NCBI RefSeq assembly: GCF_001620365.2 | Contig: NZ_LQMT02000001.1 | Span: 1-48,654, forward strand | Direction of reading: 5' to 3' | DNA from: Amycolatopsis keratiniphila subsp. keratiniphila | GTDB taxonomy: Bacteria; Actinomycetota; Actinomycetes; Mycobacteriales; Pseudonocardiaceae | Length of the DNA: 48,654 bases | Shown here: positions 23,378-34,619 of the stretch, one piece after another | How the letters are laid out: the number at the start of each line of letters is the position of its first letter | Position numbering within the stretch: the first letter of the stretch is position 1 | The notes under the pieces: generated by a model | The model's input: the letters and a program-made list of their open reading frames with translations, nothing else | Databases searched by the model: none | Told to the model about the DNA's origin: nothing | Made by a program: the position numbers and the translations under genes

Positions 23378-25141
23378 TCAAGGCTTGAGCTGGGCGGTGA
23401 AGAACTCGACCATCTCCGCGGTCGTCCGCGCGGTGCCATCGCTGCGGGTCGAGACGAGCATCGCGCTCAACGGCGCGTCTTCGGTCCCGAAGAGCACGAT
23501 GCCGCTTCGCGCGCCCACGCCCGCCACGTAGCGCCCTCGGAGGCCGTCGGCCGCCCAGGTGCCCTCCGCGGGTTTGCCCTTGGTCATCCGCTGCCGGACG
23601 CCGTCCTCCAGGCCGGTCATCGCGACGCCCTGGTAGTAGTTGATCGCGTTCGATCCTTTGGCGTCCTTGAACACGCAGGTGACCGCCGACGCCGCACCGA
23701 CCGTGGCGGCCGCGTCCGGCGCGTCCCGGCACTCGTCCCGCTGCGGGATGACGGCGGCGATCCGGCGGAGACAGTCCGTGAACCCCTGCGCGTCCTTCGG
23801 GCCGGGCTGATCGCAGCTCACCGGTTTCGCCGGAGCCGGCCCGGCGACCGGCTCCTCCTTGCCGCCGCTGAGCAGGACGATCGTCGTCACGATCGCTGCG
23901 AGAGCGAGGGCAACGACGCCGTAGGTCGTGGGTTTCTGCCAGTTGCGGCCGGGCGGCGGCGGGGGCGGTGTCCAACGCGGCGGCTGAGGACGCTGCGGCG
24001 GGGGCTGGTGCTGAACCGGCTGTTGGACGGGCTGTGGCCGCACCGGCGCGAAGGCGGGCACGGTCAGCTGGGAATCCTCACCACCGGTGGGCACGTGATG
24101 CAGCCCGAACGCGACCGCGGTCTCCGGCTGGTCCTGCGTGGTCGGCGCGATCCTGAGCTGGTTCGCCAGCAGGCTCGCCAGCAACGGCATCCGGCTCGGC
24201 CCGCCGACGAGGTAGACGCCGCCGAGCCGGTCCGGGGTCAGCCCGGCGCGATGGATCGTGGTGGCCAGGAGTTCGCCGCTGCGCAGGAAACTCGGCCGGA
24301 CGAGCGCTTCGAGCTCCATCCGCGTCACCCGCACGTCGCCGAACGGCTCCGGCATCGGGATCTCGGTCTGCTGGTGCCGCGACAGGCTTTCCTTGGCGTC
24401 ACGGACATCCTGCAGCAACGACCGGCGCGTCCGGCGGTCGCTGACCGACTGCGGGCGCAGGATCCGTTGCCACTGCGCGGGATCGGAATGCGACACCTCG
24501 CGGCCGATGTGCACCAGCAGTGCCTGGTCGATGTCGAGACTGCCGAGATCGGGCAGCCCGTCCTCGGCGAGCACGGCGAACCCCTGCGCGCTCACGCCGA
24601 CGACGGCGCAGTCGAAGGTGCCCGCCCCGAGGTCGTACACCGCGATCGGACCGGGCGGCCGCCTGCCGTTGTTGAGCGAGGCGTAATGCGCGGCGGCCGC
24701 GACCGGCTCGGGAATGAGCACCGTGGTGGGAAAACCGGCCTTGAGGGCGGCGTCGCGGAGGATCTGCTTGCGGTCCGGGCCCCAGCCCGCGGGATGCGAG
24801 ATGCGCACCTGCGCGGGCATCCGCTGGAGGAGCAGCTCGGCCTCTTCGCCGACACGGCGCAGCACTGCGGCGAAGGCGTCGGCGATGGGGAGCGAGAGGT
24901 CACCGAGCTGGAGAGCGCCCTCGTCGATACGCCGCTTCGGATTCGCCTCGAACCGGCTCGGGTCGAGGCGGGCCCGGCGTTCGGCGTCCCGGCCGACGAA
25001 GACCGTGCCGTCCTTGTCGGCGTAGATCGCGGACGACATCGTCACCGACCCGTCGATCTCGACGACCTGCGTCCCCCTGCCGTGGATCGAAAGCACCCCC
25101 ACCGTGCTGGAGGTACCGAAATCGATCGCCAGAACGTCCAT
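23378..25141 (-). CDS. Membrane-anchored Hsp70-like ATPase with extracytoplasmic domain
   Basis: The 587-residue protein starts with an Hsp70-type actin-fold ATPase domain (about 1-350: phosphate-1 motif IDFGTSSTVG, then IPEPVAAA, YDLGAGTFDCAV and LVGGPSRMP). There is no substrate-binding domain. Instead a proline-rich linker (about 360-400), one membrane helix (406-426) and an outer domain of about 160 residues with four cysteines follow. The domain order resembles actinobacterial Hsp70-like proteins of unknown role that may report on envelope state. The ATG at 25141 is chosen because GGGAGGGGG lies just upstream and the Hsp70 fold begins at once. The open frame upstream runs into the 21-bp repeat array. 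Confidence 0.87.
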   Translation of the reverse strand: MDVLAIDFGTSSTVGVLSIHGRGTQVVEIDGSVTMSSAIYADKDGTVFVGRDAERRARLDPSRFEANPKRRIDEGALQLGDLSLPIADAFAAVLRRVGEEAELLLQRMPAQVRISHPAGWGPDRKQILRDAALKAGFPTTVLIPEPVAAAAHYASLNNGRRPPGPIAVYDLGAGTFDCAVVGVSAQGFAVLAEDGLPDLGSLDIDQALLVHIGREVSHSDPAQWQRILRPQSVSDRRTRRSLLQDVRDAKESLSRHQQTEIPMPEPFGDVRVTRMELEALVRPSFLRSGELLATTIHRAGLTPDRLGGVYLVGGPSRMPLLASLLANQLRIAPTTQDQPETAVAFGLHHVPTGGEDSQLTVPAFAPVRPQPVQQPVQHQPPPQRPQPPRWTPPPPPPGRNWQKPTTYGVVALALAAIVTTIVLLSGGKEEPVAGPAPAKPVSCDQPGPKDAQGFTDCLRRIAAVIPQRDECRDAPDAAATVGAASAVTCVFKDAKGSNAINYYQGVAMTGLEDGVRQRMTKGKPAEGTWAADGLRGRYVAGVGARSGIVLFGTEDAPLSAMLVSTRSDGTARTTAEMVEFFTAQLKP

Positions 25142-25184
25142 CTGACCCCCTCCCGGACCCGATGGCATCGTCTCACGCCCTCCG

Positions 25185-25414
25185 ATCACGCGAGTTCCGC
25201 CTCCAATCACGCGAGTCACGGCCCCAATCACGCGAGTTCCGTGCCTGATCACGCGAGTCGCGCGTCCAATCACACGTGTCGTCCGCCTGATCACGCGAGT
25301 TCGCCGTCCACGCACACAGGCCCCTGTGCGGGAAAGGCGAAATCACGTGATTGAACGCGTAACTCACGTGATTGGGGACGTAACTCGCGTGATTGGAGGG
25401 CGAACTCGCGTGAT
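25185..25414. repeat. 21-bp phased repeat array with mirror symmetry
   Basis: The core ATCACGCGAGT starts at 25185, 25206, 25227, 25248, 25269 (variant ATCACACGTGT) and 25290, exactly 21 bases apart. The reverse-complement core (ACTCGCGTGAT and variants) starts at 25341, 25362, 25383 and 25404, also 21 apart. Four copies on each side are symmetric about 25320.5, where GCACACAGG and CCTGTGC face each other. The array fills most of the gap 25142-25497 between clpC (3' end) and the Hsp70-like gene (5' end). The same unit recurs at 34348-34421. Two helical turns per unit would put each core on the same DNA face. It may be an operator array or a mobile minisatellite; the function is unknown. Confidence 0.9.
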
Positions 25415-25445: not shown

Positions 25446-25482
25446 GAAGTGCCCGCCGCGGCGAAACCGCGACGGGCACTTC
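25446..25482 (-). terminator. clpC terminator hairpin
   Basis: A 16-base arm starting GAAGTGCCCG (25446-25461) pairs with 25467-25482 with one mismatch around the loop CGAAA. It begins 15 bases after the clpC stop. On the minus strand a TTTT run follows shortly after the stem, fitting a Rho-independent terminator. Confidence 0.75.
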
Positions 25483-25497: not shown

Positions 25498-28056
25498 TTA
25501 CTCGCCCTCGGCTTCACCGTTCTCTTCGGTCGAGCCGGCACCGATGCTCACCGGCGGGGCGTCCGGGACCGACGAGGGACGGGCTTCGCCGCGGAAGACG
25601 AAGTGCGCCTTGTCGTCCTTCTCGCCCTCTTCGTCGTTCCAGCCTTCGACGTCGACCAGGATGATCTGGCCGGGCTGGACCTCGCCGAACAGGATCTTCT
25701 CCGACAGCTGGTCCTCGATCTCGCGCTGGATCGTGCGACGCAGCGGCCGCGCGCCCAGCACCGGGTCGAAGCCGCGCTTGGCGAGCAGCGACTTGGCCTT
25801 GGGCGTGAGCTCCAGCTCCATGTCCTTGGCCTTGAGCTGCGTCTCGACCCGGGCGATCATCAGATCGACCATCTCGATGATCTGTTCCTTGGTCAGCTGG
25901 TGGAAGACGATGATGTCGTCGATCCGGTTCAGGAACTCCGGCCGGAAATGCTTCTTCATCTCCTCGTTGACCTTTTGCTTCATCTTCTCGTACCGGTTGG
26001 TGCTGTCACCGCCGGACGAGAACCCGAGCGAGACGGACTTGGAGATGTCCGAGGTACCCAGGTTCGAGGTGAAGATGAGCACGGTGTTCTTGAAGTCGAC
26101 CGTACGACCCTGACCGTCGGTGAGACGGCCGTCTTCGAGGACCTGCAGGAGCGTGTTGTAGATCTCCTGGTGGGCCTTCTCGATCTCGTCGAACAGGACC
26201 ACCGAGAACGGCTTGCGCCGCACCTTCTCGGTCAGCTGGCCGCCCTCTTCGTAGCCGACGTAGCCCGGAGGGGCACCGAAGAGCCGCGAAGCGGTGTAGC
26301 GGTCGTGGAACTCGCCCATGTCGATCTGGATGAGCGCGTCGTCCTCGCCGAACAGGAACGCCGCGAGCGCCTTGGACAGCTCGGTCTTACCGACACCGGA
26401 CGGGCCGGCGAAGATGAACGAGCCGGAGGGGCGCTTCGGGTCCTTCAGGCCGGCACGGGTGCGGCGGATCGCCTGGGAGACGGCCTTGACCGCGTCCTCC
26501 TGGCCGATGATCCGCTTGTGCAGCTCCTCCTCCATGCGGAGCAGACGCGTGGTCTCCTCCTCGGTGAGCTTGAACACCGGGATACCGGTCCAGTTGGCGA
26601 GGACCTCGGCGATCTGCTCCTCGTCGACCTCGGCGACGACGTCGAGGTCGCCGTCCTTCCACTGCTTCTCCCGCTCGCCCTTCTGGCCGAGGAGGGTCTT
26701 CTCCTCGTCACGGAGGCGGGCGGCGCGCTCGAAGTCCTGCGCGTCTATCGCGGACTCCTTGTCCCGGCGCACGTCGGCGATCTTCTCGTCGAACTCGCGC
26801 AGGTCCGGCGGCGCGGTCATGCGGCGGATGCGCATCCGGGCGCCGGCCTCGTCGATCAGGTCGATCGCCTTGTCCGGCAGGAAGCGGTCGTTGATGTAGC
26901 GGTCCGCGAGGGTGGCCGCCTGCACCAGCGCGCCGTCGGTGATCGAGACGCGGTGGTGCGCCTCGTACCGGTCACGCAGACCCTTCAGGATCTCGATCGT
27001 GTGCTCGAGCGACGGCTCGCCGACCTGGATCGGCTGGAAGCGGCGCTCCAGCGCGGCGTCCTTCTCGATGTACTTGCGGTACTCCTCGAGCGTGGTCGCG
27101 CCGATGGTCTGCAGCTCACCACGGGCCAGCATCGGCTTCAGGATCGACGCGGCGTCGATCGCGCCCTCGGCGGCACCCGCGCCGACGAGCGTGTGCAGCT
27201 CGTCGATGAACAGGATGATGTCGCCGCGGGTCTTGATCTCCTTGAGCACCTTCTTGAGGCGCTCTTCGAAGTCACCGCGGTACCGGGAACCGGCGACCAG
27301 GGAGCCGAGGTCGAGGGTGTAGAGCTGCTTGTCCTTCAGCGTCTCTGGGACCTCGCCCTTGACGATGTTCTGCGCGAGCCCCTCGACGACGGCGGTCTTG
27401 CCGACGCCGGGCTCGCCGATGAGGACCGGGTTGTTCTTGGTGCGCCGCGACAGCACCTGCATGACCCGCTCGATCTCTTTGCCCCGGCCGATGACCGGGT
27501 CGAGCTTGCCTTCGCGGGCCTGCACGGTCAGGTTGCGGCCGAACTGGTCGAGCACCAGCGACGACGACGGGGTGCCTTCACCGCGTCCGGAGCCGGTCTC
27601 GGTCGACTCCTTGCCACCCTGGTAGCCCGACAGCAGCTGCAGGACCTGCTGACGCACCCGGTTGAGGTCCGCGCCGAGCTTGACGAGCACCTGTGCGGCG
27701 ACGCCTTCTCCCTCGCGGATCAGCCCGAGCAGGATGTGCTCGGTGCCGATGTAGTTGTGGCCGAGCTGCAGCGCTTCGCGCAGCGACAGCTCAAGCACCT
27801 TCTTGGCCCGCGGGGTGAAGGGGATGTGCCCGCTCGGGGCCTGCTGCCCCTGGCCGATGATCTCCTCGACCTGCTGGCGGACGCCCTCCAGCGCGATGCC
27901 CAGCGATTCCAGCGCCTTGGCGGCGACACCTTCACCCTCGTGGATCAGACCCAGGAGGATGTGCTCGGTGCCGATGTAGTTGTGGTTGAGCATCCTGGCC
28001 TCTTCTTGGGCCAGGACGACCACCCGCCTCGCGCGGTCGGTGAACCTCTCAAACAT
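25498..28056 (-). CDS. clpC: ATP-dependent Clp protease ATP-binding subunit ClpC
   Basis: The 852-residue AAA+ unfoldase feeds substrates to ClpP. It has two N-terminal Clp repeats (each with [14 protein letters not shown], residues 1-145), the first AAA domain with Walker A GEPGVGKT from 214, a middle UVR-like coiled-coil insertion ([18 protein letters not shown]), and the second AAA domain with GPSGVGKTE. The C-terminus ends in the usual acidic tail. GAGGGAG lies about five bases before the ATG. It is the orthologue of M. tuberculosis ClpC1 (Rv3596c). A candidate ClgR box lies about 250 bases upstream, and a strong hairpin follows the gene. Confidence 0.97.
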
Positions 28057-28302
28057 GTGCACTCCCTCGACTGCTGCGACGGCGGCCCGTTTCCATCGTG
28101 CTTTCACCGCGATGGATTCAGCACCGTGAGACCACTCTAGTAGCCATGCGGTCGCGCTGGCGTACCACTACGGCTGATTGCGGCCCGTTCGCGCCCAGGC
28201 CGTTCTCCGGCCGTGCGCTCTTTCATCTTCCGGTTGCCCTGCACCTTTACGTCAAGCCCAACGTGCGAACACGCGTCCGGATTCCGCCGGACGAGGGTTG
28301 TC

Positions 28303-33599: not shown

Positions 33600-34369
33600 C
33601 CGACTGGAAGGCGGCGTTCACGGCGACGTTCGGCGCCCCCGCGTCGGCGGTGTCCGCGCGGATCTGGGCCGAGGTCTACGGCGACGAGTACCCCGCCGAG
33701 CTCGACACCTACAGCTTCGTGACCCGGACCGACCTGCGCCGCATCGCGGCCGAAGCGCGGCTGGAGCCGGGCGGGCTGCTCGCCGACATCGGCTGCGGGC
33801 GCGGCGGTCCCGGGCTGTGGGTCGCCGCCCGCACGTACGCGACGCTCACCGGCATCGACATCGCGGCGACGGCGCTGGCGTCGGCACGGCGCCGCGCGGA
33901 GGCCATGGATGTCGAGGCGACCGAGTTCCGGGTCGGCGACTTCGAGGACACCGGGCTGGACGACGCGTCGTTCGACGCGGTGATGAGTGTCGACGCGCTG
34001 CTGTTCGCGCCGGACAAGCGCCGCGCCTGCGAGGAATTCGCGCGGATCCTCGCGCCGGGCGGGCGGCTGCTCGTGACGACCTGGGACTTCGACGGGCAGC
34101 CGGTGAACCGGCCGCCCCAGGTCGCCGACCACCGGCCGCTGCTGGAGGCCGCCGGTTTCGACGTCCTTTCCTACGAGGAGACGCCGGACTGGCGGGCGCG
34201 GCAACGGCGGACCGTGGAGCTTTCGCTCGAACGGCTGGAGGAACTCGCGGCCGAATCGGGCGACGATCCTTCGAGGCTCCGGGCGAGCCTCGAACAGACG
34301 CTGCGGAACCAGGACCTGATGACGCGGCGGGTGCTGATGATCGCCTCCCGCCACGAGTCGTCCGTCTGA
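33596..34369 (+). CDS. SAM-dependent methyltransferase, second of a coupled pair
   Basis: The 257-residue class I methyltransferase has motif I LLADIGCGRGGPGLWVA, the SAM-binding TGIDIAATALASARRRA, and FDAVMSVDALLFAPDKRRACEEFARILAPGGRLL, resembling small-molecule O- or N-methyltransferases. It is translationally coupled to the preceding gene (ATGA). Its last codons and stop lie inside the 21-bp repeat array at 34348-34421: the TGA is part of the repeat unit. The native C-terminus may therefore have been set by the repeat. The substrate is unknown. Confidence 0.88.
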   Translation: MTDWKAAFTATFGAPASAVSARIWAEVYGDEYPAELDTYSFVTRTDLRRIAAEARLEPGGLLADIGCGRGGPGLWVAARTYATLTGIDIAATALASARRRAEAMDVEATEFRVGDFEDTGLDDASFDAVMSVDALLFAPDKRRACEEFARILAPGGRLLVTTWDFDGQPVNRPPQVADHRPLLEAAGFDVLSYEETPDWRARQRRTVELSLERLEELAAESGDDPSRLRASLEQTLRNQDLMTRRVLMIASRHESSV

Positions 34370-34421
34370 TCACGCGTGTCGTCCGTCTGATCACGCGTGT
34401 CGTCCCTGCGGTCACACGAAA
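34348..34421. repeat. 21-bp phased repeat array, second locus
   Basis: The core ATCACGCGTGT starts at 34369 and 34390, with a degenerate core at 34411 and a partial one (CACGAGT) ending at 34358, all on the same 21-base period. The linker CGTCCGTCTG is shared with 25280-25289, where it reads CGTCCGCCTG. The array begins inside the methyltransferase gene, supplies its stop codon and runs into the convergent gap before coaX. Confidence 0.85.
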
Positions 34422-34479: not shown

Positions 34480-34564
34480 GTCGTGTTCGCGGGCGGGGCC
34501 AGCGACGGTGTGAAGGCTCCCTTCACCACGTCTAATGCGGCGAAGGGAGCCTTCAGCCCTGGTC
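34480..34564. repeat. Double-palindrome repeat, family 2, copy 2
   Basis: It matches 4891-4977 over about 85 bases, with GAAGGCTCCCTTC, GTCTAAT and GAAGGGAGCCTTC in the same order and spacing. It lies in the convergent gap 34370-34657 together with the 21-bp array and the hairpin at 34572. Confidence 0.75.
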
Positions 34565-34571
34565 AAGCGCG

Positions 34572-34619
34572 GGTCGTGAGTGGCGTTTCGGGTTAGAACC
34601 CGAAGCGCCACTCACGACC
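34572..34619. terminator. 23-bp hairpin with two-base loop, probable bidirectional terminator
   Basis: The arm starting GGTCGTGAGTGGCG (34572-34594) pairs with 34597-34619 around the central AG, with one G-T mismatch. It lies between the convergent methyltransferase and coaX genes. A stem this long with almost no loop suggests a cruciform or a repetitive-element end as well as a terminator. Confidence 0.65.

What the first reader, a model, noticed from the sequence alone, without database searches (positions are those of the whole stretch)
25185..25414. 21-bp phased array with mirror symmetry between clpC and an Hsp70-like gene
Six forward and four inverted copies of an 11-bp core keep an exact 21-base period, and four on each side are symmetric about 25320.5. 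Twenty-one bases is two helical turns, so all cores face the same side, as for cooperative protein binding. The inter-core linkers vary more than the cores. A CRISPR or ordinary REP element would not give this pattern. The array lies upstream of the Hsp70-like gene.
Basis: partly seen in the sequence, partly recalled or inferred. Interest (0 to 1): 0.8.

Follow-up and report, generated by a model that had tools for sequence, protein, structure and literature searches.

The report
Mirror-image 21-base arrays behind genes
An 11-base DNA site, repeated exactly every 21 bases in mirror-image arrays, is scattered by tens to hundreds through many Amycolatopsis genomes, mostly between genes that point at each other, where an unknown protein likely binds it and would keep the two genes' transcription apart.

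Summary
The array at 25185-25414 is one copy of a repeat family of the genus Amycolatopsis (genus inferred). The core ATCACGCGAGT occurs exactly 277 times in the window's genome (reversed control: 1), and 88 of 88 exact same-strand pairs with a gap up to 30 lie 21 bp apart. Exact 21-spaced pairs occur in 36 of 80 genus genomes and 0 of 271 from 45 other genera of the family. The promoter reading does not generalise: of 76 placeable intergenic arrays sampled in this genome, 46 lie between convergent, 26 tandem, 4 divergent genes. At orthologous sites the gap holds an array, another hairpin, or nothing. Between two sister genomes cores changed about four times less than linkers (32/649, 60/280); arm spacing is kept while the centre drifts. 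Signs of selected RNA pairing were not found, nor Y1_Tnp in 80 genomes. I read it as a REP/BIME-like 3'-end element held at DNA level, likely by a protein on the two-turn lattice acting as a transcription barrier. Protein and function are inferred; RNA terminator and selfish palindrome remain real rivals.

The parts
25185..25300 (+). forward arm: six cores of ATCACGCGAGT type at 25185, 25206, 25227, 25248, 25269 (2 mismatches), 25290; period 21
25301..25340 (.). centre spacer between the arms, with the small imperfect palindrome CACAGGCCCCTGTG at 25315-25328; its length drifts between species
25341..25414 (-). inverted arm: four cores at 25341 (2 mismatches), 25362 (1), 25383, 25404; period 21
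25446..25482 (-). clpC intrinsic-terminator-like hairpin, separate from the array; a like hairpin is visible in several orthologous gaps printed for this site
   Evidence: (pair I8)
25142..25177 (-). block directly upstream of the Hsp70-like start codon, kept in relatives with and without an array
25498..28107 (-). clpC, the upstream gene; its stop is 83 bp from the array
23378..25141 (-). Hsp70-like gene, downstream of the array
34357..34415 (+). second, short array in the window (core ATCACGCGTGT at 34369 and 34390, period 21), starting at the stop of one of two convergent genes

Best explanation
The array is one of many copies of an Amycolatopsis repeat at gene ends whose 11-bp cores, set exactly 21 bp apart in mirror-image arms, are likely read as DNA by an unknown sequence-specific protein that would sit in register along each arm and act as a barrier between neighbouring transcription units. 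Shown: the family, its 21-bp lattice, its bias to 3' ends and convergent gaps, the gain and loss of 21-bp units and of whole arrays between species, and cores more conserved in place than linkers. Inferred: that a protein binds, that binding is cooperative between neighbours two helical turns apart (each core is a near-palindrome, TCRCGYGA), and that the bound array blocks or insulates transcription. The symmetric arms would present the same face to polymerases coming from either side.
For: Lattice: 88 of 88 exact core pairs at gap 10, none at the other 30 gap lengths. At orthologous arrays 0 of 87 (clpC site, 13 genomes) and 2 of 85 (site B, 11 genomes) arm steps are off lattice, whereas the 40-41 nt centre departs from its commonest length in 5 of 13 and 7 of 11 (5 of 8 at site B without three genomes whose centre holds a core-like word, so that the register is unsure), although the centre is better conserved in letters (0.75 and 0.66) than the innermost linkers (0.60 and 0.55). 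In situ, 15 orthologous arrays in G000 and G070 differ at 32 of 649 core, 60 of 280 linker and 138 of 1399 other positions. Against RNA pairing: own-arm linkers pair no better than swapped ones in the own genome, 6.39 against 6.71 of 10, n=28; G-U 107 against A-C 99 in 40 tandem-gene arrays. Place: 46 of 76 placeable own arrays convergent, 4 divergent.
Against: No binding protein or binding data. 44 of 80 genus genomes have no exact 21-spaced pair, and sites are often empty or filled with other hairpins, so no single array is essential. Those replacements fold strongly (7 of the 8 that I folded have z of -4.2 or lower), which fits a hairpin function or selfish palindromes better than a sequence-specific site. 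The 3'-end bias could just reflect where inserts are tolerated. The core/linker contrast is inflated because cores were picked as within 1 mismatch of the consensus in at least one genome. Copying of whole units also helps to keep the period, and drift of the centre would be expected of a hairpin loop too. The G000-G070 alignments also hold gaps of 1-6, 20 and 29 whose place in arm or centre I did not assign. In other species the own-arm pairing did exceed swaps, 6.84 against 6.30, n=55, though off-register pairs exceeded them as much. clpC already has its own terminator-like hairpin.
Confidence: 0.42

Rival explanations
1. RNA hairpin: the arrays are bidirectional terminators or RNA 3'-end stabilisers for convergent genes, working as long stem-loops in the transcript; the shared letters are a by-product of how they spread.
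For: Very strong folding (window array -155.5 kcal/mol, z -11.9); place right behind stops and between convergent genes; the same gaps hold other strong hairpins in relatives.
Against: No arm-to-arm covariation beyond the consensus in the own genome, no G-U excess in tandem arrays; a terminator needs neither an 11-bp consensus nor an exact period; three of 19 close genomes have the site A gene pair with overlapping stops and nothing between; 38 of 138 arrays with two or more cores within 1 mismatch run one way only.
Confidence: 0.25
2. Selfish or passive palindromes: a REP/BIME- or MITE-like element spreads by an unknown enzyme that reads the core and survives where inserts do least harm, between convergent stops.
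For: Patchy within the genus (exact 21-spaced pair in 36 of 80); presence and absence at orthologous sites, 14, 12 and 12 of 19 close genomes at three sites; site with overlapping stops and no insert in G070, G019 and G015; several unrelated palindromes occupy the same gaps; place as described for REPs (PMC3733652, passages).
Against: No Y1_Tnp/RAYT in 80 genomes; no partner enzyme found (none but Y1_Tnp was sought); no exact pair in viral contigs and, by distant blastn of the window array, no match in plasmids; cores are conserved in place better than linkers, unlike decaying inserts.
Confidence: 0.27
3. Neutral minisatellite made by slippage of a 21-bp unit.
For: Alignments of 7 of 15 shared arrays between two sister genomes hold a gap of 21 or 42; 4 to 14 cores at this site among species.
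Against: Mirror arms, genome-wide spread of one core, positional bias, core conserved over linker.
Confidence: 0.04
4. Operator array for the Hsp70-like gene.
For: Array lies 43 bp upstream of the start codon and is of the rarer +/- polarity.
Against: Five of 19 close genomes and all 11 more distant ones looked at (30 of the 80 with the gene) lack it there, while the start-proximal block stays; the family is rare in divergent promoter gaps.
Confidence: 0.02

Closest known systems
REP elements and BIMEs (bacterial interspersed mosaic elements)
   Same: Dispersed intergenic palindromic repeats in tens to hundreds of copies, in alternating orientation, close behind stop codons and between convergent genes (PMC3733652, abstract in the listing and passages).
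   Different: Unit is an 11-bp core on a strict 21-bp lattice in direct repeat within each arm, not a 20-40 bp stem-loop; no Y1_Tnp in 80 genus genomes.
CGTC-tagged REPs
   Same: No dedicated transposase known (PMC3733652, passages); the second array type here carries CGTC in its linkers.
   Different: CGTC REPs are 8-9 bp stems with 4-5 bp loops; by eye no such stem-loop lies inside the 21-bp unit.
Gyrase- or IHF-bound REP/BIME repeats of E. coli
   Same: A repeat between convergent genes, where positive supercoils gather, read by a DNA-binding protein (PMC1525189, passages).
   Different: No binding protein is known here; no sequence likeness was tested.
parS sites of ParB
   Same: Near-palindrome with a TCACGTGA-like centre (recalled resemblance).
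   Different: Own genome has its parS-like sites, four within 3.3 kb on one contig; cores lack the flanks and are scattered.

Membership tests
REP/BIME elements | many dispersed, mainly intergenic palindromic copies | tested here: met
   277 exact cores; of 81 own arrays sampled 2 lie inside called genes, 57 are of -/+ and 8 of +/- polarity, 14 one-way or single, 2 mixed
REP/BIME elements | place behind 3' ends, between convergent or tandem genes | tested here: met
   46 convergent, 26 tandem, 4 divergent of 76 placeable own arrays; 3 at a locus edge and 2 inside genes left out
REP/BIME elements | unit is a 20-40 bp stem-loop with GTAG or CGTC tag | tested here: not met
   unit is an 11-bp near-palindrome plus 10-nt linker; the long stem needs two inverted arms (judged by eye)
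REP/BIME elements | RAYT (Y1_Tnp) in the genome | tested here: not met
   PF01797 in 0 of 80 genus genomes; control found it in 5 of 14 named genomes
Intrinsic terminator | stem whose pairing is kept by compensating changes or G-U | tested here: not met
   (own genome; no register-specific excess in other species)
Intrinsic terminator | transcripts end there | not testable with these tools
   no expression data on hand
Cooperative protein-binding array | fixed helical spacing of conserved sites | tested here: met
   within each arm; not across the centre
Cooperative protein-binding array | a protein that binds | not testable with these tools
   none identified
CRISPR array | repeats with unique spacers and cas genes | tested here: not met
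   10-nt linkers share one pattern, YMCGNSYYYR; arms are inverted; cas genes were not searched
parS sites | GTTTCACGTGAAAC-type sites clustered in one region | tested here: not met
   parS-like sites lie elsewhere, on contig C33

The most novel reading that the evidence does not exclude
A genus-specific DNA-binding protein assembles on a two-turn lattice at gene ends as a dedicated, symmetric transcription barrier: a bacterial insulator element present in scores of copies per genome, made and lost by 21-bp steps, and interchangeable with hairpin terminators at the same gaps.
Probability: 0.2. Interest if true: 0.82.

Novelty: new variant of a known kind. Interest (0 to 1): 0.52.

Why it matters
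If a protein reads this lattice, it would be a sequence-specific 3'-end insulator in bacteria, a role usually left to RNA hairpins and Rho. If not, the family is still an unusually regular REP-like repeat without a detected RAYT, in a genus known for antibiotics, with orthologous sites in dozens of genomes on which gain, loss and unit turnover can be read directly. It makes the old question of what REP-like repeats are for testable: spacing and letters can be changed apart from pairing.

Tried and rejected
Rfam families: three matches, none near its gathering score. RAYT link: PF01797 in 0 of 80. A native single site of the binder in core-poor genomes: of nine such single hits looked at, seven lie inside called genes (two of them in the same, orthologous gene) and two lie outside genes beside no shared gene; I take them as chance. 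A replacement lattice in a core-free genome: 400 kb of G027 held 0 of 277 noncoding pieces with the core; its seven period-21 tandem rows are of about two copies each and unlike one another. Orientation of one-way arrays to the nearest 3' end: 21 one sense, 11 the other, of 32; not pursued. Equal core number in the two arms: 38 of 97, permutation mean 33.9, so no strong symmetry of number. Phage or plasmid carriage: none in viral contigs (exact pattern), no plasmid match to the window array (distant blastn). parS: different sites. L079, the one stretch of 99 not named Amycolatopsis, has GC 0.596 and different linkers; I take it as unrelated. Literature: nine searches; no title or start of abstract that they listed names this repeat, and several lists were capped. 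The core letters occur in 8 papers, of which the 7 listed concern unrelated matters by title and start of abstract. Passages were read in three papers: PMC6749651, PMC3733652 and PMC1525189. PMC6749651 counts 23 satellites in A. mediterranei without giving their letters in the passages seen, so some arrays may be among them. This is no proof that the repeat is unpublished. Errors of my own: one search misoriented loci on the minus strand and was redone; rows were used only where the orientation was right.

Full report
WHAT IS IN THE WINDOW. The array is as described: six forward and four inverted cores, period 21 inside each arm, mirror centre at 25320.5 for the inner four pairs. Exact cores are five forward and two inverted; the other three have one or two mismatches. 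The step across the centre is 51. The array lies between clpC (stop 83 bp away) and the start of an Hsp70-like gene (43 bp away), both on the minus strand. clpC has a separate terminator-like hairpin at 25446-25482. A second array with core ATCACGCGTGT starts at the stop codon of a gene that ends at 34369, in a convergent gap.

GENOME-WIDE. The 11-mer occurs exactly 277 times in the 9.09 Mb assembly; the reversed pattern occurs once. All 88 exact same-strand pairs with a gap between 0 and 30 have a gap of 10. In the window and the first 40 fetched sites, which are all sites of the first contigs in the list (up to C13) and were chosen by a single exact core, so unbiased for spacing, the next same-strand core within 1 mismatch lies at 21 in 76 of 81 cases; the rest are 42 (three), 22 and 62. 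Linkers average 5.5 of 10 identical letters and follow YMCGNSYYYR. Arrays are mostly '- then +': 86 of 138 arrays with two or more cores, own and other species together, against 11 '+ then -', 38 one-way and 3 mixed. The window array is of the rarer '+ then -' kind.

WHERE IN THE TREE. An exact 21-spaced pair occurs in 36 of 80 genomes of the genus and in 14 of 26 genus genomes but 0 of 271 genomes from 45 other genera in an even draw of the family. These are lower bounds: G082 scores zero there yet has an inexact array at one site. The genus is Amycolatopsis by inference: 98 of the 99 stretches that a capped scan of named genomes returned carry that name, and a contig of G014, in the window's genus, has the same length (1,757,848) as a named A. 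oliviviridis contig. Counts run from 0 to 277 exact cores among the genus members. A 400 kb sample of the core-free stretch of G027 showed neither cores nor another 21-bp family, while the same sample of G030 had cores in 6 of 243 noncoding pieces.

PLACE. With a simple codon-usage gene caller, own arrays of the first set fall 23 convergent, 13 tandem, 3 divergent, 2 inside a called gene (41 in all). In 98 loci of named relatives the counts are 65 convergent, 24 tandem, 3 divergent, 9 at a locus edge (101 arrays). Gaps of 80 bp or more without an array in the same loci are 12 of 75 and 19 of 235 convergent, 32 of 75 and 111 of 235 divergent. A second own set (40 of the 44 further sites listed) and 40 of the 53 G070 sites listed repeat this: 23, 13, 1 (3 edge) and 23, 13, 2 (2 edge). 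Many arrays begin within 20 bp of a stop codon. The loci of named relatives and the second own set were selected by 21-spaced pairs, and the G070 set leaned to sites with two or more cores, so their spacing counts are not independent evidence; their context is.

ORTHOLOGOUS SITES. Of 80 genus genomes with the Hsp70-like gene, the 30 best-matching loci were read. At the clpC site 14 of 19 close genomes (own included) have a '+ then -' array with 4 to 14 cores within 2 mismatches in the gap. G019, G014, G015, G079 and G082 have none, nor do 11 more distant genomes. The 36-bp block next to the Hsp70-like start is there with or without it. At a convergent site (A) both proteins end at the same codon in all 19 close genomes (read by eye), yet between the stops lie an array (12), a decayed look-alike (1), an unrelated hairpin (3), or nothing, the two stops sharing a CTAG (3). 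At a second convergent site (B) 12 of 19 have arrays. Eight non-array fillers were folded, the three of site A and five of the seven of site B: seven have z of -4.2 or lower, one -1.8.

SELECTION. For 15 arrays shared by G000 and G070, 32 of 649 core positions, 60 of 280 linker positions and 138 of 1399 other positions differ; Fisher p for core against linker is 2.4e-13. A first pass with other alignment rules gave 27 of 647, 58 of 300 and, for flanks, 254 of 2120. The contrast is biased towards core conservation because cores were chosen as within 1 mismatch in at least one genome; against half the linker rate the difference is still about two-fold. Seven of the 15 alignments hold a gap of 21 or 42, that is whole units; there are also gaps of 1-6, 20 and 29 that I did not assign to arm or centre. 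Arm steps stay on lattice (87 of 87 and 83 of 85; one of the two exceptions, by its text, is a chance core in the next gene) while the centre spacer departs from its commonest length in 5 of 13 and 7 of 11 genomes, though its letters are more alike than the linkers'. At site B the centre of G070, G007 and G066 holds a core-like word, so the register is unsure there; without them it is 5 of 8. Drift of the centre would also be expected of a hairpin loop.

DNA OR RNA. In the own genome linkers of one arm pair with their own opposite arm no better than with swapped arms (n=28). In other species they do (n=55), but off-register pairs exceed swaps as much, which points to species-specific linkers rather than base pairing. 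In 40 tandem-gene arrays read on the sense strand, G-U and A-C mismatches are equal (107 and 99), as they are in 86 convergent ones (209 and 214); five divergent ones have 4 and 12. I take this as evidence, not proof, that the letters and the period are held at DNA level. The array would still fold very strongly if transcribed.

KNOWN KINDS. The place and the dispersed palindromic habit are those of REP/BIME elements, which in other bacteria lie mainly between tandem and convergent genes, convergent ones often under 20 bp from both 3' ends (PMC3733652, passages), and which bind gyrase and IHF (PMC1525189, passages). The family differs in unit, in the strict lattice and in the absence of Y1_Tnp from 80 genomes. 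It works like a BIME in place; it fails two defining tests of membership.

VERDICT. The promoter idea is not supported. The binding protein and the barrier role are inferred.

Noticed in passing
window 34510-34555 and 34573-34618: Two further long palindromes of other families (GTGAAGGCTCCCTTCACC... and GTCGTGAGTGGCGTTTCGGGTTAGAACCCGAA...) share the same convergent gap as the second array; look-alikes of both appear beside arrays or in array-free gaps, so the genus seems to hold several palindrome families that trade places.
   Followed up: partly
L246, L247, L243, L252, L253, L255 (between clpC and the Hsp70-like gene): Six relatives carry extra coding DNA between clpC and the Hsp70-like gene whose last reading frame looks, by eye, like an XRE/HigA-type antitoxin; in G066 and G086 core clusters lie at two places in that gap. 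Not searched.
   Followed up: no
G000 contigs C27, C28, C45, C50: Four contigs of the assembly end within about 20 to 300 bases of an array, as if long hairpins break assembly.
   Followed up: no
L269-L287 (site A): Two convergent genes keep the same reading-frame ends in 19 close genomes while the DNA between their stops ranges from a shared CTAG to 227 bp of unrelated palindromes.
   Followed up: partly
L079 2300-2480: An unrelated 21-bp tandem repeat with GCTGTGACTCGCGTGATCGTC-like units in a contig labelled a Rubripirellula MAG; likely a chance match.
   Followed up: no
L183, L184: Two of the few divergent-gap arrays lie beside genes that read, by eye, like TetR-type regulators; not tested.
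   Followed up: no
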